Part shown: piece by piece, positions 4,109 through 15,596 of the stretch | How the letters are laid out: each line of letters opens with the position of its first letter | Position numbering within the stretch: position 1 is the first letter of the stretch | DNA from: Falciphora oryzae | Taxonomy: Eukaryota; Ascomycota; Sordariomycetes; Magnaporthales; Magnaporthaceae | Reading direction: 5' to 3' | DNA: 15,835 nucleotides | NCBI GenBank assembly: GCA_000733355.1 | Contig: JNVV01000059.1 | Coordinates: forward strand, 205,255 to 221,089 | Translations under genes and position numbers: made by a program | Notes under the pieces: model-generated | The model's input: the letters and a program-made list of their open reading frames with translations, nothing else | The model's database searches: none | Told to the model about the DNA's origin: nothing

Positions 4109-4440
4109 GAGAGACCGGTGATTAATTGCAAGGCGGAACCTGTAACTTCCAAGCAGTGTATTCCTTGCTTTTTTTTCTAATGCCCCAAGACAACACGCTC
4201 TAGTGATACCCCCGCAGGGCGGTTTTAGGGCGCAAACGAGACCGTGGGCCACCGGGGATGTGGTACCGAGAAGATGGGGCTTACTGGGTCGGGCAGGTGT
4301 GCCTAGAAGCCCTGGGTTCCGTGGATCTAGCAGTTCTTGCACCATGTACCTCTGTCACGAGGGGGGCTGCAGACGACCAGATGCTTGCAAAGGAAGAACG
4401 CTAGCGTACCAAAGCAGGCGTTTTCGGCGTGGAAGATATA
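4109..4440. other. Region between the small gene and the MITE
   Basis: Mostly GC-balanced sequence. A plus-strand open frame from 4203 runs into the MITE and has no recognisable domain. The last 35 bases before the MITE (about 4406-4440) can be read in frame with the decayed Copia DNA beyond it (VPKQAFSAWKIY, then LKHFIKQYNEL), so the Copia left edge may lie inside this stretch. Confidence 0.35.
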
Positions 4441-4852
4441 ACGTGGTTCACAAGCGAGTCGGTCACACAAGCGAGTCGATCACTTCAAAATCCCATATTA
4501 AACAGCGTTTTTTTCAATTAAATAACTCGTTCAATTTGGAGCTAAATTCCACCAAATTTAACATACTTATATTTAACTTTAAAGTGATTATAATTTGAAT
4601 TTTCCGCATTTTTATTATTACCCCTTTTAGGTTAGTTTGCAACACTGTATGTTACACTGTGAAAATATGCAAACTAACCCACAAAGGGTAATAATAAAAA
4701 TGCGGAAAATTCAAATTATAATCATTTTAAAGTTAAATATAAGTGTTTCAATTTTAGTGGAATTTAGCTCTAAATTGAACGAGTTATTTAATTGAAAAAA
4801 AACGCTGTTTAATATAGGATTTTGAAGTGATCGACTCGCTTGTGAACCACGT
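4441..4852. mobile_element. Fold-back MITE of the Fot1/pogo type, 412 bp
   Basis: The element starts ACGTGGTTCACAAGCGAGTC and ends with its reverse complement, and is flanked by TA on both sides (4439-4440 and 4853-4854), the target duplication of Tc1/mariner-pogo elements. The two arms are inverted copies over nearly their whole length, so a single strand could fold into a long hairpin. The arms meet around 4640-4670, leaving only a short loop region (CACTGTATGTTACACTG). There is no coding capacity. The left arm carries an extra 17 bases that duplicate a GAGTCG-ending unit, which the right arm lacks. The first 21 bases match the terminal repeat of the Fot1 element at 13189-15147 at 18 positions, so a related pogo transposase probably mobilised it. 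Confidence 0.85.
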
Positions 4853-4854
4853 TA

Positions 4855-5789
4855 TTTAAAGCACTTTATTAAACAATATAACGAGCTTATATCTAAAGCT
4901 ATTAGTAAATGCATTTATAAACCGTAATAAACAAAATGGAAATTTATAGAAAATAAGTGTTTAATTGCATGTGGGTATTCGTGCATAAATTTGATAAATA
5001 CGGCCGTTTCTAAAAAGCTAAAATACGATTTATTGTTTGGGGTAATTAGCAAAAGGTGGCATCGGGAAAATCCATTTACGCGTCCACCCTCGTTGCGCGT
5101 TTTTTTAAATTTTTGCTAGCATTTGCAGCGACTTTCGACTAAAAAGTGGATTAGTACGATGTTACCAACGCTTTCGTTTACGCCCCTTTACGCAAAAAAA
5201 CGTTTATAAAAATGCTAAGCGGATTTCGAGTCCCCGGTAAGGTTTGCAGGCTTAGGAAAGCGCTATACGGTTTGCGTAAATCCCCGCTACTTCAATAAAA
5301 AGATTTAAAAGGCAAGCTTTAAAAATTAAGCTTTTAGCCCCTTTAAAAACGAACTATGCGTTTTTTAAAAAGGGAACGTTATAATTTTTATTTATATAAA
5401 CGACCTTTTAGTTGTTTACCCGCGAGCTGCCCGTATAAAAGCTAAATCCGTTATCGCCGGCTTTTAAAAAAAAATACGCTATAACCGGAAGCATTTATTG
5501 CAATAGTTATTAAGGATAACTACAAATTTTTAAAAACAAATTAAATAAACGTATTTATTTATCCCAAGCCGGTTATATTAACAAAATAGCCGCTTTAGCA
5601 AACGAACTAATACCTTTTCGATTTTTAAATACGTTTATAACAGTTACAAAGCTACTTCCAGCGGAAAAGCGGGCATCCGTTACTATAATCTGGAGCTATT
5701 AGCGTAAAATCGGCTCGCTGCTATATGCAGCAATTACGGCCCGCCCGGACGTAGCCTTCGCCGTTTTAAAACTAAACCGGTTTAATACC
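4855..5789 (+). pseudogene. Copia reverse transcriptase, decayed fragment
   Basis: Several Copia reverse-transcriptase landmarks can be read in order. FVHKFDKYGRF lies near 4978-5010. DVTNAFVYAPL is near 5160-5190. KVCRLRKALYGLRKSPLL is at 5239-5292. YINDLLVV starts at 5393, where the polymerase motif would be YVDD, so the first catalytic Asp is now Asn (GAC to AAC). KIGSLLYAAITARPDVAFAV is at about 5705-5765. Reading-frame shifts occur near 4920-4960 and 5300-5390, and there are many stops of the CAA/CAG/TGG type. The fragment ends at RFNT (5789), exactly at the solo LTR insertion, and its next codons (NPF...) are found at 13024. It encodes no functional protein. Confidence 0.85.
5785..5789. 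repeat. Left 5-bp target duplication (ATACC) of the solo LTR
   Basis: ATACC here is repeated at 13019-13023. Removing one copy and everything between the two rejoins the Copia reading frame (FNT to NPF). Confidence 0.85.
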
Positions 5790-6360
5790 TGTCACACGGA
5801 AGAACCTGTGGACTCACCTAATCGGCCCCACAGAAGGTCCGGGAACCGGTATAGGTGCCCAACGGCCCCGAGGCCCAAAGGCCGAAGGCCGGAAGGGCAG
5901 TGTGAATCATGTACTCGATACTTCGCACGGATCACAGGGTGGTTTATATAAACCCTACCATCTCCTATGTCCTCCATGAAATATTCCTTCTTCCTCAAGC
6001 ATCTCTTGAGCCCACAGAAAGATTATCTGCAATATAGAGATCCTTCTCCAAGCCGTCTTTGACCCCTTGTTACAATACCTGTTGGAAGGATAATTGACGG
6101 TCGCACGAAGGGAAAAGGGCATTGCACGGGAATCCCCAATAGCCAGGGACTTCGAGGCAGAGAGGCCCCGCCTCTCTGACACGGAGGGTCCGGCAATGGG
6201 GATCACCGGTCATGCACGGAGACGGTGCAAGTCACAAGTCAGGCCCGGCACCGGGACTGGCCTTGTGCGATCGCACCCCGCGGCCTCCGTGATTGGGATA
6301 TATGTATCTAGAGGGCTCGCACGAGGAGCCCTTCCGTTGTTTCTAGAAGACAGACGACTT
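5790..6360 (+). mobile_element. Solo LTR, left part (continues at 12949)
   Basis: The LTR begins TGTCACACGG at 5790 and, after the inserted 6.6-kb element, ends CACGAACA at 13018. It is about 641 bp when the insert and one 9-bp duplication are removed. Its ends are TG...CA and it is flanked by ATACC. It has no coding capacity and is GC-rich compared with the Copia DNA on both sides. A perfect 14-base palindrome, GGTTTATATAAACC (5941-5954), contains a TATA box. A second inverted repeat, CAGAGAGGC ccc GCCTCTCTG (6158-6178), lies further in. The orientation is not certain, because the TATA palindrome reads the same on both strands. The last nine bases (6352-6360) are the target duplication of the nested element. 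Confidence 0.8.
6352..6360. repeat. Left 9-bp target duplication (AGACGACTT)
   Basis: Identical to 12940-12948. It immediately precedes the left terminal inverted repeat. The right copy immediately follows the right one. Confidence 0.9.
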
Positions 6361-6376
6361 TAGTCTCAGTGACTCA
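6361..6376 (+). repeat. Left terminal inverted repeat of the 6.6-kb element
   Basis: TAGTCTCAGTGACTCA matches the right end perfectly over 16 bases. Position 17 differs (A versus G, a RIP-type transition) and positions 18-19 match again. The repeat has internal symmetry (AGTC tcagt GACT), a possible binding site for a dimeric protein. Confidence 0.9.
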
Positions 6377-6523
6377 AACGTGATGACAAAGATGGAGCCG
6401 CCTCAACCCGTGGCTGATTGTGGCTCCGCCAGGTCGCTTGGTCTTCGCTTGGTCTGTGCGCATGTATTTGTGGGGCGGCCATCTTTGTGAGAATCACGTC
6501 TGAGGCAACATGGTGATTTTTTC

Positions 6524-6731
6524 GAGGCTCTGGCACACACTCCCATACAAATTGAAAAAATCCATTTTGAACACTTGTGAATACCTTCATCGCCGCATTT
6601 CGCCGGCCAAAATAAACCAATGGCGGAAGGTTAGAATTGCTCCAGCTTTCGTATGGTATTTTCCTATTTTTTTTTCAATCGCCGGAAAACGCATGCTAAC
6701 TCCAAACGGAAAAATGAGGCTCTGGCACACA
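6524..6731 (+). repeat. Subterminal 16-bp direct repeat
   Basis: GAGGCTCTGGCACACA occurs at 6524-6539 and again, identically, at 6716-6731, upstream of the helicase start at 6766. A related motif (TGGCACAATTCG in reverse orientation, about 12775-12790) lies near the other end of the element. Repeated subterminal motifs are often transposase-binding sites. Here that is only a possibility. Confidence 0.6.
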
Positions 6732-6765
6732 ATTCGGGAATAAATAGCTTCGTTCCCGATACCCC

Positions 6766-9187
6766 ATGGCTAATCAGCCACAAGGGCCGGCATTTATCCC
6801 AAACTTGCTGGGGGGCATCTTTGGGCCCATGCCAAGGGCCGAGTATATGCAGCAAGCTCTCAAAGCAATTAGCAACTGCCGCGACCTAGCCCAGGGGCAA
6901 TATCAAGGGGTTCCTTTCCGAAATATCATCCTTGATATCTACAACCACACGTCAAGCCCGGAAAATTCCGACGTCCAGCATGAATTCGTGGCGTCCATTG
7001 CAAGTTCCCTTTTAAACCAGGGTCGGGAGGGTCAAACCGGACGGCGTGAACCGAAAAACGAACAGGTTAAATGCATTCAACGCATTGTATACCAGCTCGG
7101 AGACACTATTCTCATCGCCAAAACAGGATACGGCAAAAGCATTGTGTTCCAAGCAGTATCTGTTATCCGAAACAAACATGTCACCGTTCAGCTTGTTCCA
7201 TTAAACAAGCTGGGAGAAGAACAGGCCCGAACCGTCGCTGGATTCCCGTGGGCTAACCCCTTGTTGCTTAACCATTTAACACGCCAGGTAAAAATCTCAG
7301 TAACAAGCCAATTTATATAAATAAAGTAGGTACTTAAGCTAATTATAAAAACAAGACGACGACATTTGGGATCCCGCCAATCCAGCAGGATATACACATA
7401 TCATTCTTGGACCAAAGCAAGCCACAAGTTACCGGTTCCTTCAACTTCTTCGCAACCCCCTATTTAGCAGCCGAATTGCCTTTATTGCTATCGACGAGCT
7501 TCACACTATCTACCAATGGAAAGATTTCCGCACGTCCTATCCTAATCTCCATATCATCCGTTCCGCTATCCCCAAATCTATTCCTTTATTCGGATGCACA
7601 GCAACCCTTACGGAAAATGCCGAAAAGTTCGTCCTCACCCACGCGGGATTCAGGTTCCTCGGGCCAAATAAAAACCAGCTACAAATTATTCGCACATCTG
7701 TGGATAGACCGGAGATTTCTTTCGTGGTCCAATGCATTACTAGACAAGAAAAACAAGGCGATTACCGTCGCCTTTTTTTCCTAGTAAAGGACGTCCGACC
7801 CGGCTTCACCCCTTCATCTATTCCTAAAACCATTATCTACATAGACGCACGCGCGGCCCTCGTTAAAGCTCGCTATGCCCTTCTCTCACACCTGCAAGCC
7901 CAAGGGGTGGATAATGCAACTGCTAGTCGTACCATTGTTATTTACCACTCCCTTACACCGACCATCGACCAACAAAGCATTTTTAACACGTTTCGTCAAG
8001 TGGATTCTCCTATCCGCATTATCTTATCTACTGTATCACTTGGAATGGGTATGGATATACCAGATGTGGCGCGTGTAGTGCAATTTGGACCACTTCTGTC
8101 ACAGGATGTTGGGGATCTTATTCAGCGGTTCGGTCGGGCGTGCCGTTCCGGTGTGGGGTACGGCATAGGTTATTTCTTCGCCCCTTATTGGTATTTCGAC
8201 CTAATGGGCACAGGCGAGAAAAAACCTACGAAAAAAAAGGGCCGGCAAAGCCAACCTCACGCACCCGCTACCCCAAGCACATTACGCCTAACAATGGGAG
8301 CGGAGGACATTGCTTCAGATGCTTCCAACGAATCGGGCTATTCTGCGGCACATTTCATACCACTTGACGTCGAAGGAGCAGTTGCTGGCGGGCAGTTTGT
8401 GTCAGCAAGCCAAAATGATGTGAACTTCACGCTCGGCATCTTCTCAGGGAGCATCCCCCTGCCATGGACACGCGAAAATATCACGCACCGAGCCAAATTT
8501 CGAAACGAGCACCCCGATATGTACAGTTTCATCAACGCCCCTTGTTTTCGAAAAGAAAGCCTTCGTCAGCTGCAGGAACCGGATGCTCCTGTTGTGCCCC
8601 CAGAGCAGTGCTGCAACGCCTGTTCCCACAAACTAGGAACTCTCGAAGTTCTCCCTAAACTGGAAACGCCTCCAGTTGAGATCCGGAAAAACACAAAGCT
8701 TTGGTTTATACGCGAGGAACTAATGGAGGTTTTATCGCGCATTGCCAACAACAAATTATACCATTGCCCAACCCGACCATATTCGTTACCTGGTTCGTTC
8801 TTAATGGAAAACGCTGTAGCCAACCATCTCGTTAAAGCCATCGACGCAAAAAACGGCATACTCGACCTACGAAGCATATGTTCGGTGGCACAAAAGGTTG
8901 GAAACTGGGAATAGCATTAATGGCTGGAAACAGAAGGCGAGTTATTGCAACGAAAAATAAGGGATATGCTGCGCCGGGGCATTGCGGCATACCAGAAACA
9001 TCGATGCCGATTTAACGCGAAAATAAACCAGCATCAACAAACGGGAGCGCAGCCGACAAGCTCGCAGCCGACAAGCTCGCAGCCGACAAGCTCGCGACCT
9101 GCAAAAAGCGCCAGCCAGAAAGCGAACCACCGACTATCGGAAACACATGCATCCTCGTCCCAAGCAAAAAAAGCCAAAAGGTTGTAA
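6766..9187 (+). pseudogene. RecQ-like superfamily-2 DNA helicase, RIP-inactivated
   Basis: Exon 1 (6766-7287) starts at the ATG after an upstream in-frame stop. It holds a Q-motif-like segment (residues 93-107) and a Walker A box, AKTGYGKS (119-125). The frame from 7355 onward gives IAIDELH (DEAH-type box at 7493-7504) followed by a Trp as in RecQ enzymes, then GCTAT (motif III), TIIYID, STVSLGMGMDIPDV (motif V) and QRFGRACRSG (motif VI, from 8123). A Cys cluster (CF...CCNAC) resembles the RecQ zinc site. An intron with donor GTAAAA at 7288 lies between the two frames, but the only AG after the last in-frame stop (7354-7355) joins them one base out of frame. TAG (8912-8914) and TAA (8918-8920) interrupt the C-terminus. 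Translation beyond them stays protein-like (WLETEGELLQRK...) to the TAA at 9185-9187. A role in unwinding DNA during transposition or repair of the excision site is inferred from its position. Confidence 0.85.
9050..9094 (+). repeat. Three tandem copies of a 15-bp unit in the helicase tail
   Basis: CAGCCGACAAGCTCG is repeated three times without change. It encodes QPTSS repeats in the low-complexity C-terminal tail of the helicase frame, followed by a basic Lys/Ser-rich end. This is probably a replication-slippage expansion. Confidence 0.85.
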
Positions 9188-9248
9188 TAAACGGTGTCAC
9201 GGTTCGGCAGTAGGAGCCTCCACCCACTTGCTACTAAAAAGACGACTA

Positions 9249-9270
9249 AGCCAAAGTCGAGACTTTGGCT
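9249..9270. repeat. Hairpin with 10-bp perfect stem
   Basis: AGCCAAAGTC is followed after GA by its exact reverse complement, GACTTTGGCT. It lies 62 bases after the helicase stop and may take part in 3' end formation, but no function is shown. Confidence 0.6.
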
Positions 9271-9569
9271 CAATTGGAGGCTCAAGTACCCTCTGTGAGG
9301 CAAGGCTGCACGAGAGGGCACGCCACGCCATAACAAACGGCTGGATCGTGCATTTTGCAAGGGGTTCGGATCGAGCCGAGTAAGTTCAGGTGAATTTTGG
9401 TTGATGGCGGGACCACAGCCCAATCGTAATATGCGGCCAGGAAAGGGGAAATAGGTTACAGATTTAATACCGAGGTCACCGGGTTACAACTGTCCTCGGA
9501 TACGGCGCCGTGGATATTTGCAGGTGGGAAATGCATCGGGTATTTCCACCGGAGTTTTTTTTCGCGGCA

Positions 9570-9604
9570 GCAAGGTGCTGTTGGTCCCTTTAACAGCACC
9601 TCGC
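9570..9604. repeat. Long hairpin between convergent genes
   Basis: AGGTGCTGTT (9573-9582) and AACAGCACCT (9592-9601) form a perfect 10-bp stem with a 9-base loop. Extending outward gives a 13-bp stem with one mismatch (GC-A versus G-GC, an A/G difference of the RIP type). A two-sided terminator or a protein-binding site is possible. Confidence 0.55.
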
Positions 9605-11550
9605 GTAAAATATTATCTAAAGATTAGCCTTCATTACCGCATTTACATCTACCATAATCGCGATGATTCGAAACATCCCAGGCCGTGTCATGTCGTCTAA
9701 TTAAGCATATTCTGCTGTTAAAGTCTGACTTCAAACTTAACGCTGGCGCACATTTTAGATCACCCCGCATTTTCCTCCGCATCGTCGTTACTGTCTATGC
9801 CTCCAAGCGGATATTCCCGTTCCCCTTCCCGGCCGACAATTGCTAAGCTTTCCTCCTCCACAGCACGCGGCAAATCCCGCTGGCTGTGTACACCAGCCGG
9901 TCTTACCATAGCCTGGTTAAAACTGTTTAGCTTGCTCCCAAGCAGGCTTACGAAGCCTTGCTCGAATACCGGCGGCGCATCGAATATTTCGTCCTGGTTG
10001 ACTTGGTCGGAACAGCTTCCCCACCCGTTTTTATACAGCACGCACGCCCACTGAGCCGCGTCTGCTTTGGTTGCCGCAACCGTGTGTGCCGTGTTTCTGT
10101 ACGTGCCAAACTTGGATTCGAACGTGGCCCGTAAGGTTGCCGCGATGGGACCAAGGGCAGCACATTGTTGGAAAGTTATCCACATGTCGTGCGTGGAATT
10201 GCGGTTGCTTTTAATGTCTGCAGAGAACCCCCTGTTCGTGTGTTCCATGGCTTGGTCGATTGCTTTAAAGCCCTTTCCAACGGTAGTGCAGCGGACTAAT
10301 CCAGATCGAAGGATGGCGGTGCGCAACGGCTCGTCCGTAATTTCTGGGCGTATAAGCCAGGTCAGGTAAAGCATTTGTGGCCCGTAGTTTTTAGCCCCTT
10401 TGCACCCGTAAAAAAACAGGGTAAGCATAGGCATGTACTGGCGAAGGACGCCGTGATCTCCGGCGCGAACAGCCTCGTCGATCACCCAAAGCAGCTCGAT
10501 AACGGCAAGATATCTGCATTGGGAGCGGAAAGAAACGTTGACATCTTTTTTGTCGGCATAAATGCCGGTACTAGCAGCGTGTCCAAACGCCTCTTGCCTG
10601 ATTTGGCTGTACACACAGTTGATGTCGTCTGTGGATGCTTCGGCCAACACCTTTTGTACAACAGACGGGGTTATATCATCGAGTTCGTGAAGTAGCCCTG
10701 CTTGTCGCAACTGGTATATTACCATGGCTAAAACTCGGGCGCGGTATGCGTCTTGAAGTAGCCGGATGGCGTGGTAATATTCCGGCATAGGTACGGATAG
10801 TTTTTGCGTCCGCCCTAACCCTTTGACGTCCATTCGTACCAAAGGTTCAAACTCCTTCCAAATGTGGTTGATGAAGTTAAGTTTGATGTGGAAAAAGGCA
10901 GGGATTGGGAGGATCCATTGCTTTCGATCGAATGGTTGGCTGGTTTCCAGTTGGGCAAATTGGATATGCTGAATAAAGGAGATTGTTTTTTAGTCGCCGT
11001 AAACAAGTACCAAGTTTTCGTTATAGTCAAATCCAGGGTTCCCAAGTCGAAATCCCAGCAGCTGTTGGAAAAGCTGCTCGTGGATGCGGATAACCCCGTT
11101 TAATTCACCTTCGTTTTCCATAATAACCGGGGTTTGGATAGCATAGGAAGCTGGGGTTTGTACACGAAAAACTTGTGGGAAAGGAAATTCCGGAAAGTCC
11201 AAAGTTAAAGGCGTGGACTCGTCGCTTTCTAAAGCGCCAAAGGCTAAAGTTCCGCCAAACAAATGGTGGAGGACCTAGTGGCGGAAAAGGAATTGTGCAC
11301 ATTGTGGTTCGGCAGCAGGAGGGTTCGACATGTACATCTCTCGGAGCCATTGCTTTTCAAACGGTACAGTAGCATGCCATTGGGATTGGGTATACCGTTC
11401 GACGTCAGGGCATCCAATGGCAAGGCAGGTGGTGATATTCCGCATGATATCGTTGCGTCCATGTCCAAGGTCTTGAACGCGATCCATAAAGTTGAAATTA
11501 TCGTACACGAAAACGAGGGAGGGGTCATGGGCGATCCGGCGGAGGTTGTG

Positions 11551-11617
11551 CTATAAACGTAATAATACTTTAATATTCAAATCACAGAAAATGCTATTCC
11601 GCCGCAGGCATACGTAC
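11551..11617 (-). other. Intron in the DUF6589-type gene
   Basis: A GTACGT donor and TTATAG acceptor define a 67-base intron. Splicing joins AVAK to HNLRRIAHDPSLVFVYDN without a frame change, and without splicing the frame ends at a TAG inside the intron. Confidence 0.75.
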
Positions 11618-12430
11618 TTTTGCAACCGCCACCAACTCGTTCATCTGCGTCCTTGCTTGCCGATAGGAACAACAAACTCCAAGCCCTGCCAGCACTTCGA
11701 CCACCGGCCTAGGAACACCACTGTTAAGCAGATAGATTCCCAAACTTTTCGACAAATAATTGCTTCGCTTGGGGGACCGGGCGTTCGCTAATATGCTCGC
11801 AAGCATAAAGCGGGGACCAGCATGTTTATTGTGACGAAGGCGAGCATCTTGTGACGACGGCTGGTTCGGCCCATATAACGACCAATGGTCACGATCATTG
11901 GCCATCAGGTGGTCGAAAAGTGCAGATAAATCTGACGCATTTTGACGGAAGACGATATCTGCTTGGCCGAGGTCTGTGCTGATCCATGAATTGTCGCAAA
12001 GATCTTTGGCGGATGCTGGCCCATCCCCTTGTGCCACGGCAGCAGGGTCGAACTGGTTGAAAGGCGCGTACGCGCTCAATGTGGCAAGGTCGTCGCGTAA
12101 TTTCGGAAAGGCTGCCGATGGCGATGTCGTCCTTTTGTTCGCAAGCTGGATCGTGATGCCGGCAGCGTGGAACGCGCGTAAAATTTCGTCGTCGTTAATG
12201 AGTTGAAGCAGGGTTCGAATGCGAGGACCTTTGGATGGGCTTGTCGTGGTGTTGATTTCGCATATCCATTGTTTAAAAAAGGAGGCGAATGAACCTCTGA
12301 CTCTTCGCCTTCCCCTTCCCAACCCTTGAACATTTCGTCCTCTCCAAAACTGGAGGGTATCTTGTACGAGCTGTAGGTTTTCTTCAGGATCGTCGTTATA
12401 ATCGCTGTCATTTCTGTCGTCGCTATCATC

Positions 12431-12501
12431 GCCATCCTCATCCCCGCCATCCCCATTCCCATCCCCATCCCCGCCATCCCCGCCATCTCTATCCCCGCCA
12501 T
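12431..12501 (-). repeat. Low-complexity minisatellite coding the Asp/Gly-rich segment
   Basis: Imperfect short repeats of the type CCCCATC and CCCCGCCAT (plus strand) encode alternating Asp and Gly on the minus strand. The acidic stretch lies at residues 59-97 of the DUF6589-type protein and is probably disordered. Confidence 0.7.
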
Positions 12502-12673
12502 TTTTACTAATATCCATACGGTCTGGGATAGGTGTTGGGGGTTGCGGGGTGGAGCTAAAAGGCGTAGTAAGGTCGGAATCTGGCAGTTCGACACCCGACA
12601 GCCCTGCAGTGATAGATGGCTGGGACTGCTGGGATTGCGCGAGAAGTGACGGCGACGAAGGCGAAATAGACAT

Positions 12674-12923
12674 TTTGCCTATAGGTGAAATATTGTTTAT
12701 TGCAAATAGAAGGTATATTGAGGGGAAAATACGGTGGCTGTTCGTGGGCACAAAAGTTGTGGTTGGGGGTTGGGAACGAATTGTGCCAAACCCCGACTTT
12801 TTCGCACCATCTTACCTCAGACCAGATGGTGGTGAAGTTAAGGGGGGGTTGTGATTGGCTGGGGGGGTGGTGGGGCCGGGGAGGCGGGGCCGGGGACTTG
12901 GGGAACTTCGCGCCACACTGGTC
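12674..12923. other. Right subterminal region of the 6.6-kb element
   Basis: About 250 bp between the DUF6589-type start codon and the right terminal repeat. It should hold that gene's promoter (AT-rich stretch near 12680-12735) and includes a G-rich tract (12842-12895) immediately inside the terminus. Confidence 0.5.
12842..12895 (+). repeat. G-rich tract with G-quadruplex potential
   Basis: Six runs of four or more G lie within 54 bases, at 12842-12848, 12861-12867, 12872-12875, 12878-12881, 12886-12889 and 12892-12895. This fits a quadruplex-forming pattern on the plus strand. It lies about 30 bases inside the right terminal repeat. Confidence 0.7.
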
Positions 12924-12939
12924 TGAGTCACTGAGACTA
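12924..12939 (-). repeat. Right terminal inverted repeat of the 6.6-kb element
   Basis: TGAGTCACTGAGACTA is the exact reverse complement of 6361-6376 and is followed directly by AGACGACTT. Confidence 0.9.
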
Positions 12940-12948
12940 AGACGACTT
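12940..12948. repeat. Right 9-bp target duplication (AGACGACTT)
   Basis: Identical to 6352-6360. The solo LTR sequence resumes after it. Confidence 0.9.
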
Positions 12949-13018
12949 TGGATACACAGAATATACCAAAGCCTTCTCACCCCAACCGGTTGATATCGAT
13001 ATCAGCGTGCCACGAACA
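12949..13018 (+). mobile_element. Solo LTR, right part
   Basis: The final 70 bases of the LTR that begins at 5790 end in CACGAACA at 13018. They are followed by the second ATACC (13019-13023) and then by Copia coding sequence. Confidence 0.75.
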
Positions 13019-13023
13019 ATACC

Positions 13024-13186: not shown

Positions 13187-13188
13187 TA

Positions 13189-15147
13189 ACGTGGTCCATT
13201 AGCGAGTCGCGCATATCACCGAGTCGCGCACCCACACCCGACCTCCGGTCAATCGACGCGCATGCCAACCCAACAACGCCAGGAATCCATTTAAACCACT
13301 TAGAACTATATACATCGGGCATTTCTACTTCTTTTTGACAAGTGCGCGCATTGTGTCCGGTTTTGCCGTAGGTGCCATATCGCCGACGAGTCGTCGTCGC
13401 CCTCCTTTCCTGACCCCTATGGTCGAGCATTTCTTGCTGTAGTTGTCCATCCAGCTCCTGCTGGTCCAAAACATCTCGTACCTGTTAATAACAAGCTATA
13501 TAATAGCTCCTGGACTGCATTGCAAATGTAGTCGGCTACACTTTTCAGTGCGCCGTGGCCAGATTGAACTCAACAGTACCTCGTCGATGGTAAGTGACCT
13601 TCCAAGTCGGACACGTGTTTTTTTGGCCCTCCGGCGTTTGCTTAGTGCTTCGTTCGCCTTTCGTAGCTTGGAACACTCTTCTTCCAAAAGGTTAACCCGA
13701 TGCATGATTGCCTTGGCCCCTTTCGCAAACTGGTCTACAGCCGTTAGCATGGATGTCGGAAAGCTGCTTTGGTGATTGGAGATCCGAGTTTTGATATGTT
13801 CGGATTGCGAAGTTGCTTCCCTGGCCGTCCGGGGCGTTTTGGAGGTTTAAGGTTCGGGGTCGTTCAAAGGCGTCCTTGGGGGAGTTGGAGTTCGTAGCTT
13901 TACATTTAGCTTTTCTAAAACCGAATCCGGATTGAAAGGAGTAAGGCCAGCCCTTCGGAAGCCTCTTTGGATGTTTTCTTTAGTTATGGAGTTAAAAAAT
14001 GCCGCTTTGAACGCCGAAAGGAACTCGACCTTGGTTACGTAGTTAACGTGCGACCTCATCAGGTTTTCGATTTATCGACCGTACGCCTTTTTCATTGGGT
14101 TGAAGCACCTAACGTCAAGCGGTTAAAGGAAGTGAGACGAATGCGGAAGCATGCAAAGCGTAATAATGTTGTGTTCCTAGCAGTAGAGCTCGAAATCCGT
14201 CGAGTGGTGGCTTTCGTGGCCGTCTAGCACTAACAAACGATGTAACCCCGTGGAATGAGCTGCAATGTGTTTATCGAAATGCCGAATCTATTCCAGGCCG
14301 AGCTCATTCGTAGTCCACCCGTTAGAACTTGTTGCGATAACCCAGTTGCGTGGAAGGTCGGTTTCCGAGTACCAATTAGCTAGGTGGTACTGCCCTTTGA
14401 CGATAATAAAAGGAGGGACCGCCCAACCGCAACAATTAACCCCTTGGATAATTGTGGCCTATTTCCGGTTGCCAAGCTGGACTAGCTTTGCTTTGCCTCG
14501 CCCTTCTGATGTTGTAATAACCATAACGGCCGCGATCATGCCTATAAGGAAGCCGGTTTCGTCGAAGTTGTAAATGTCGTCATCCTGAATGCTATATTTG
14601 GCCACAATGTTCCGTACAAGGCCGAACCACGCAGAAACGAGCTTGGGATCTTCGCATTTGGCCCTTTGGTAATCGTACTTTCGAATCCAGCGCGTGCCGA
14701 GCTCTGCGCGGCGTTTAACGAACCTTTCGACCCAGCACTTACCAACGGTGCCCGCGTCGCGTTCGGCAAGCAGTCGGTTGGCCATAGCTTCAACACCAGA
14801 AGGCCGGGGAGGAAATGCGCGAGAATCCAGCTCGAGTATGTATTTGACAAGAGCCTCCTTTTCGGATTCCGTTAATTTCCGAGAATTGAGCATGCTGTCG
14901 CGTCGAGCAGGTCGTCCGGCGCGTCGGTCGCGCAGTGTGGATTTAGGAATATCGTAGATTTTAGCTGCCGAACGCAAACCCAATCCCCGATTAGATTGGA
15001 TTGCCTGCATGGCGAGAACAATCCTAGCTTCTTTCGATGTTGATGCCATTTGTGGTTGTTGAGGAATTGAGATTGGAAGTGGGAGACGCGGGTCGCGATG
15101 GAAAACGCGCGACTCGGTGATATGCGCGACTCGCTGATGGACCACGT
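13189..15147 (-). mobile_element. Fot1/pogo (Tc1-mariner) transposon, 1,959 bp
   Basis: The ends are 41-base inverted repeats beginning ACGTGGTCCATYAGCGAGTC, with one difference (T/C at base 12), at 13189-13229 and 15107-15147. They are flanked by TA on both sides (13187-13188 and 15148-15149). Removing the element and one TA restores the Copia frame. It carries one transposase gene on the minus strand, broken by several stops. The terminal repeats contain two GAGTCG copies, as do those of the MITE at 4441-4852. Confidence 0.92.
13308..15049 (-). pseudogene. Fot1/pogo-type DDD transposase, RIP-inactivated
   Basis: The ATG at 15049-15047 starts MASTSKEARIVLAMQAI. A psq-type helix-turn-helix follows (AAKIYDIPKSTLRDR), then a CENP-B/Tc5-like DNA-binding region, NFDETGF (first catalytic Asp), LVLDGHESHHS (second) and a PLDV segment (third). 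Near the end are a coiled, basic region (LLEEECSKLRKANEALSKRR) and TGHNARTC, the remains of a zinc-knuckle-like motif in which two expected Cys read Tyr (YGTYGKTGHN). In-frame stops lie at 14459-14461, 14288-14290, 14177-14179, 14123-14125, 14072-14074 and 13847-13849. Most replace Trp or Gln, as RIP would do. The C-terminal motif is in another frame past about 13,490, so a short intron or frameshift lies there. The Asp residues survive, but no full protein can be made. Confidence 0.85.
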
Positions 15148-15149
15148 TA

Positions 15150-15596
15150 ATTAAATTATGTAAAAGAATTATTGGCTGGAAAGCGAACAAATAATTTATA
15201 GTAGCTACTTTTATTTGCGAAACGGAGCTTTTAGCACTTTTTTAAAGTGCTAAAAAAAGCATTTTCGTTATTCGCTTATTGTAGGAGTTATACCCAACTT
15301 TACCCGTCGATTTTAACCTGGTTGATTTAAATATTTGGACTATTCGGATCCTATGTAACAACACGTTAACTATTTAAATCGTTACGTTTAAAAAAGCCCG
15401 TATAAACTTTCAGTTTAAGCACGTGGATATATATAACTGCTAGGTAAGGGAGGCGGTGCGGATAAACAAAATCTCCGTGGAATACGTGCTAACGGATTGC
15501 CAATTGGCCGATGGCCTAACCAAAGCCCTGTTTAAGCATAAATGGAACGACTTTTTACAGCAAATGGGATTTGTTAACGTTTTCCAATTAATTTAA
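15150..15596 (+). pseudogene. Copia RNase H and C-terminus, decayed last fragment
   Basis: The frame continues from KYI (13186) as IKLCKRIIGWKANK, then VATFICETELLAL (the TEAE-type RNase H motif with substitutions), and later KHVDIYNC, VREAV and LADGLTKAL, the usual Copia C-terminal motifs, to the TAA at 15594-15596. Stops after WKANK, LALF, RLL and YNC fit CAA/CAG/TGG changes. The last 150 bases are much less damaged than the rest. Confidence 0.85.

What the first reader, a model, noticed from the sequence alone, without database searches (positions are those of the whole stretch)
6352..12948. A two-gene DNA transposon pairing a RecQ-like helicase with a DUF6589-type protein
The sequence shows a perfect 16-base terminal inverted repeat and a perfect 9-bp target duplication enclosing exactly two large genes, in a solo LTR that is itself flanked by a 5-bp duplication. 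Helicases are rare cargo in TIR elements, and DUF6589 proteins have no assigned function that I know of. The boundary evidence makes this a discrete mobile unit and suggests RecQ-DUF6589 neighbours elsewhere are transposons too. Novelty is inference.
Basis: partly seen in the sequence, partly recalled or inferred. Interest (0 to 1): 0.92.

Follow-up and report, generated by a model that had tools for sequence, protein, structure and literature searches.

The report
Helicase-carrying fungal transposon (AcademH type)
This is a real jumping gene of a fungus that carries a likely DNA-cutting enzyme and a DNA-unwinding enzyme; it looks like a member of an already described class, and it suggests that a protein family listed as of unknown function is that cutting enzyme.

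Summary
Of 17 TIR pairs tested in this genome, 14 have an exact 9-bp duplication, one has it with a mismatch, two do not; 272 mismatched pairings gave none. Of 42 DUF6589 loci, 35 have a RecQ-like helicase convergent within 2.5 kb. In two other ascomycetes both proteins come from contigs of identical length, so probably the same contig. DUF6589 is most likely the transposase itself: for two predicted models the best solved matches are DDE transposases (P element, Hermes). Both genes show purifying selection. A 1.5-kb gene-less derivative with the same ends and duplication suggests movement in trans. Helicase, DDE transposase and 9-10 bp duplication are what is published for AcademH (Kojima 2020, seen only through citing papers). 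KolobokH does not fit: TTAA duplication. Verdict: new member of a known kind; the gain is an inferred function for DUF6589. The window copy is broken: two stops in its DUF6589 gene, two more in the helicase tail.

The parts
6361..12939 (.). whole DNA transposon, 6579 bp
   Evidence: TIR and TSD; copies elsewhere start and stop at these bases
6361..6376 (+). left terminal inverted repeat TAGTCTCAGTGACTCA
   Evidence: 94 vs 8 control hits in genome
12924..12939 (-). right terminal inverted repeat (exact reverse complement)
6352..6360 (+). target site duplication, left copy AGACGACTT
   Evidence: present once in the empty LTR copy L008
12940..12948 (+). target site duplication, right copy AGACGACTT
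6766..7287 (+). helicase gene, first exon (from ATG; end approximate, splice sites not established); motif I AKTGYGKS
   Evidence: ORF and weak DEAD match, 25.1 bits, E 1.6e-5, just under the Pfam cut-off
7356..8914 (+). helicase gene, main exon (start approximate): DELH, TAT, GMGMDIPDV and QRFGRACR motifs, RecQ-like; open to 8911, then two stops in the C-terminal tail
   Evidence: Helicase_C 46.7 bits; recQ_fam 74.9 bits, below that model's cut-off of 219.8; BLM, WRN and RecQ1 chains in PDB at E 2e-9 to 1e-8; stops
11618..12673 (-). DUF6589 (putative transposase) gene, first exon: acidic low-complexity N-terminus and further region
   Evidence: ORF; ATG and GT donor read from the sequence, inference
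9760..11550 (-). DUF6589 gene, main exon: putative DDE catalytic domain; two in-frame stops in this copy
   Evidence: PF20231 165 bits when the search reads through stops; stops counted; fold of relatives
5790..13018 (+). probable solo LTR (TG...CA) interrupted by the transposon
   Evidence: ATACC at 5785-5789 and 13019-13023; ends not confirmed by the two copies compared

Best explanation
It is an AcademH-type DNA transposon. The DUF6589 protein is the DDE transposase: it binds the TAGTCTCAG ends, cuts the element out and joins it to a target with staggered cuts 9 bp apart, giving the 9-bp duplication. The RecQ-like helicase made from the second, convergent gene is a required partner, probably unwinding DNA during strand transfer or repair at the ends. 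Shown here: the boundaries, the duplications, the empty sites, the gene pairing, conservation of both genes, and a gene-less derivative with the same kind of ends and duplication. Inferred: catalysis by DUF6589, its three acidic residues, the cut-and-paste route, and the helicase's exact step.
Against: No Academ sequence was on hand, so kinship with Academ transposases was not tested. Model confidence is middling (mean pLDDT 67.7 and 68.5), rmsd to P element and Hermes is 5.1-8.4 A, VIA-align only re-ranks Foldseek's list, and Foldseek alone gave no match at E<=0.001 (best Hermes 3.1e-3). Two of 17 TIR pairs (C70, C85) show no clear duplication. dS could not be computed (saturated) for 9 of 15 DUF6589 pairs and 4 of 6 helicase pairs, and the one close pair gives weaker ratios, 0.28 and 0.43. 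No excision or transposition was observed.
Confidence: 0.8

Rival explanations
1. A KolobokH element: Kolobok transposase with a RecQ helicase, known only from fungi.
For: KolobokH carries a RecQ helicase and is fungal, and one red-alga Kolobok has its RecQ helicase on the complementary strand, as here (PMC9587614).
Against: Kolobok makes TTAA-specific 4-bp duplications, and the lineage KolobokP 3-5 bp; here 14 of 17 are 9 bp with no shared sequence.
Confidence: 0.03
2. A separate, unnamed superfamily that shares helicase and 9-bp duplication with AcademH only by convergence.
For: Helicases occur in several transposon groups (AcademH, KolobokH, Helitron). No paper held mentions DUF6589. Kinship with Academ transposase was not tested.
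Against: AcademH matches in gene content, duplication length and presence in Ascomycota and Basidiomycota; DUF6589 proteins occur in both.
Confidence: 0.12
3. A different transposase moved the unit and both genes are passenger cargo.
For: TIR plus 9-bp duplication is also seen in MULEs (recalled).
Against: Only two large genes lie inside; relatives of one have a DDE-type fold; both are conserved between diverged copies and stay paired in 35 of 42 loci.
Confidence: 0.02

Closest known systems
AcademH (Academ superfamily; Kojima 2020, Mob DNA 11:15, not held, seen through citing papers)
   Same: Helicase-encoding transposon with 9 or 10 bp duplication; found in Basidiomycota, Ascomycota and Mucoromycota.
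   Different: No difference established. AcademH is called low-copy in fungi, while this genome holds 42 merged DUF6589 loci, many of them decayed; ends and transposase were not compared with named AcademH families.
KolobokH
   Same: DDE transposase and RecQ helicase, fungal.
   Different: Kolobok duplicates TTAA, 4 bp, against 9 bp without a shared sequence here.
AcademX
   Same: The other lineage of the Academ superfamily.
   Different: Encodes a nuclease, not a helicase, and makes 3-4 bp duplications.
P element and hAT (Hermes) transposases
   Same: Closest solved folds of the two DUF6589 models.
   Different: 7-12% identity in the structural alignments; they make 8-bp duplications and carry no helicase (recalled).
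Subtelomeric RecQ helicase repeats of fungi
   Same: Repeated RecQ-like genes in fungal genomes (passages).
   Different: Those lie at chromosome ends; here the helicase lies in TIR elements on many contigs. Whether any of these copies is subtelomeric was not tested.

Membership tests
AcademH | 9 or 10 bp target site duplication | tested here: met
   14 of 17 TIR pairs exact 9 bp, 1 with one mismatch, 2 without
AcademH | encodes a helicase | tested here: met
   RecQ-like helicase in the window; 35 of 42 DUF6589 loci paired with it
AcademH | encodes a protein with a DDD/E transposase fold | tested here: met
   By predicted fold only: two models of relatives rank DDE transposases first; Foldseek alone weak
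AcademH | three catalytic acidic residues in place | tested here: inconclusive
   D319, D466 and E717 proposed; E717 lies in a low-confidence stretch and is K in 15 of 29 copies
AcademH | transposase core groups with Academ transposases | not testable with these tools
   No Academ sequence or profile on hand; the defining paper is not held
AcademH | terminal sequence resembles known AcademH families | not testable with these tools
   No library of named elements on hand
KolobokH | TTAA-specific 4-bp duplication | tested here: not met
   9-bp duplications of mixed sequence
KolobokH | RecQ helicase encoded | tested here: met
AcademX | 3-4 bp duplication | tested here: not met
   9 bp duplications
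AcademX | nuclease gene | tested here: not met
   The six window ORFs scanned gave helicase and DUF6589 domains, no nuclease

The most novel reading that the evidence does not exclude
DUF6589 marks a superfamily of its own, or a deeply separate branch of Academ: a P/hAT-like DDE transposase that needs a RecQ helicase made from a convergent gene, spread through Ascomycota and Basidiomycota and hidden so far behind a domain of unknown function.
Probability: 0.12. Interest if true: 0.6.

Novelty: new member of a known kind. Interest (0 to 1): 0.4.

Why it matters
It gives a Pfam family of unknown function (DUF6589, PF20231) a testable role as a DDE transposase, so fungal genes annotated DUF6589, or RecQ-like genes beside them, can be recognised as transposon genes and kept out of host gene counts. 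The family is also a tractable case for asking why some DDE transposons keep a helicase: several diverged subfamilies, clean 9-bp duplications and gene-less derivatives in one genome.

Tried and rejected
Chance repeat: rejected. Giant cargo transposon: the C35 TIR pair is 27.5 kb apart with an exact duplication, and the helicase match there was reported in a 1605-aa open frame; that frame runs through a long stretch of N and LTR-like sequence lies in it, so nested insertion and unread sequence are the likelier cause. Only 5.5 kb of its interior and 4.2 kb around its DUF6589 gene were read, so cargo is not excluded. A gene-less element type: C69:39033-44911 has no DUF6589 or helicase match, but is the 1.5-kb C16-type derivative with nested repeats. 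YGPEM glutamate as third catalytic residue: put second, not excluded. Other ends of C92 and C44: looked for at guessed places, no TIR motif found, so these two are not among the 17 pairs; for C9 only the outer pair was counted, since the inner left end belongs with another right end. Search of IMG/VR contigs for DUF6589 relatives: none. Profile search with A1: 7 hits, one of them a basidiomycete (Exidia), no animal protein (capped candidate list). Papers naming DUF6589: 0; PF20231: one unrelated optics paper.

Full report
What was checked. The window is a piece of a genome of 50.18 Mb in 123 contigs (G000:C59:205255-221089); protein relatives point to an ascomycete fungus (inference). The element runs from 6361 to 12939. 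Its ends are a perfect 16-bp inverted repeat and it is flanked by AGACGACTT on both sides. It interrupts a probable solo LTR, 5790-13018, which begins TG, ends CA and is flanked by ATACC; the two LTR copies compared match only from 6099 onward and one runs 14 bases past 13018, so the LTR ends are not confirmed. The left flank without the insert is listed at 32 places and the right flank at 28, both capped lists. 13 places list both flanks joined, 11 with an overlap of 10 bp (the 9-bp target plus one base) and two with 7. One empty copy, L008, was read: it has a single AGACGACTT.

Other copies. Five further copies of the left part start at 6360 or 6361 at 92-97% identity over the matched stretch. 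Three copies of the right part match without a break up to 12939 and stop there, two more have separate end pieces that stop there, and one diverged piece (C70) runs one base further. The TIR motif with up to two mismatches has 94 places against 8 for the pattern read backwards. From these I picked 17 opposed TIR pairs with both flanks fetched: 14 have an exact 9-bp duplication, C41 one mismatch, C70 and C85 none; 272 cross pairings gave none with two mismatches or fewer (flanks). Two of the 17 (C16, C69) are gene-less, and C35, C41, C72 and C9 are longer, probably through nested insertion. C92 and C44 were tried but their second ends were not found. The 14 targets share no sequence. End variants fall into at least four groups (TAGTCTCAGTGACTCA...TGCCTCA...TGGCTC...AGGCTCA).

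Genes. The + strand gene is a RecQ-like helicase: Helicase_C 46.7 bits, recQ_fam 74.9 bits (under that model's cut-off of 219.8), BLM, WRN and RecQ1 chains at E 2e-9 to 1e-8. The - strand gene is DUF6589 (PF20231), 165 bits when read through. The genome holds 47 DUF6589 matches and 59 helicase matches, merged within 1.5 kb to 42 and 46 loci; 35 of the 42 DUF6589 loci have a helicase convergent within 2.5 kb. Of the seven others, C35 and C72 have their helicase 12 and 16 kb away, convergent, between the same TIR pair; C16 and one C69 locus have a convergent one at 2.9 and 9.8 kb; two C30 loci and C36 have none near. Eleven helicase loci are not in such a pair; three of these are weak matches (24-35 bits) that may be host helicases. 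In Annulohypoxylon truncatum both proteins are on a contig of 7473 bp, and in Achaetomium macrosporum on one of 14770 bp (same contig inferred from species and equal length).

Selection and age. Between diverged copies synonymous sites are near saturation while proteins hold: window against C51 gives dN/dS 0.09 (DUF6589, 583 codons) and 0.12 (helicase, 516 codons); pN/pS over all pairs is 0.21-0.42 (15 pairs) and 0.27-0.43 (6 pairs); dS was undefined for 9 and 4 of these pairs, and the one close pair, C92 with C44, gives 0.28 and 0.43. So the helicase is conserved, which argues against idle cargo. Against its nearest copies the window differs almost only by transitions: transversions are 4 of 408, 6 of 204, 4 of 593, 8 of 569 and 6 of 512 differences (C25, C72, C85, C4, C41; sums), and most of the rest are C to T or G to A in the copy, most often at CpA but also at CpT. 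That looks like repeat-induced point mutation after recent spread (inference; direction not polarised by an outgroup). Many copies carry TAA and TAG stops. The window copy has two stops in DUF6589 exon 2; its helicase is open to 8911 and then has two stops in a tail that another copy keeps open. At least one copy has both main exons open with the three acidic residues kept.

Movement in trans. C16:215673-217204 is 1.5 kb, has an exact 9-bp duplication and no match to the two proteins; the C69 element is 97-98% alike over the main blocks, also with an exact duplication, and holds nested repeats.

Comparison with the known. I could not read the AcademH paper. From citing papers: AcademH makes 9 or 10 bp duplications and encodes a helicase, AcademX makes 3 or 4 bp and encodes a nuclease (PMC10045372, passages and section 11); AcademH is low-copy in Basidiomycota, Ascomycota and Mucoromycota (PMC10799480, passages); KolobokH has a RecQ helicase, is fungal, and Kolobok duplicates TTAA (PMC9587614, passages). 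PMC8290104, PMC12210899, PMC4522978 and PMC5576322 were seen in passages only. The features that could be tested fit AcademH; the transposase tree could not be made. No held paper mentions DUF6589, and PF20231 gave one unrelated paper, so the link DUF6589 = DDE transposase may be unstated in print; that rests on two searches of an open-licence library.

Verdict. A real, multi-copy, probably recently active AcademH-type transposon family. The finding is sound in observation and ordinary in kind; the worth lies in the DUF6589 assignment.

Noticed in passing
window 13187-15149: 43-nt inverted repeats (98% complementary) bound a 1963-bp unit; a minus-strand ORF (14462-15241) that overlaps it matches HTH_psq and HTH_Tnp_Tc5: a pogo/Tc5-like transposon remnant.
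   Followed up: partly
window 4438-4855: AT-rich 418-bp palindromic element whose ends resemble those of the 13187-15149 unit, so possibly its MITE; similar pieces lie in L098.
   Followed up: partly
G000:C9:1029390-1041537 (L075, L076): Two elements of this family look nested: a second left TIR sits 19 bp inside the outer one; the outer pair keeps an exact 9-bp duplication.
   Followed up: partly
G000:C35:62164-89625: TIR pair 27.5 kb apart with exact 9-bp duplication, with LTR-like sequence and a run of N inside; its DUF6589 main exon is open.
   Followed up: partly
DUF6589 copies of the window's clade (L011, L013, L016, L021, L025): The YGPEM motif, invariant in 16 homologues of other origin, reads YGPQM in this clade, a change that C-to-T mutation does not explain.
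   Followed up: no
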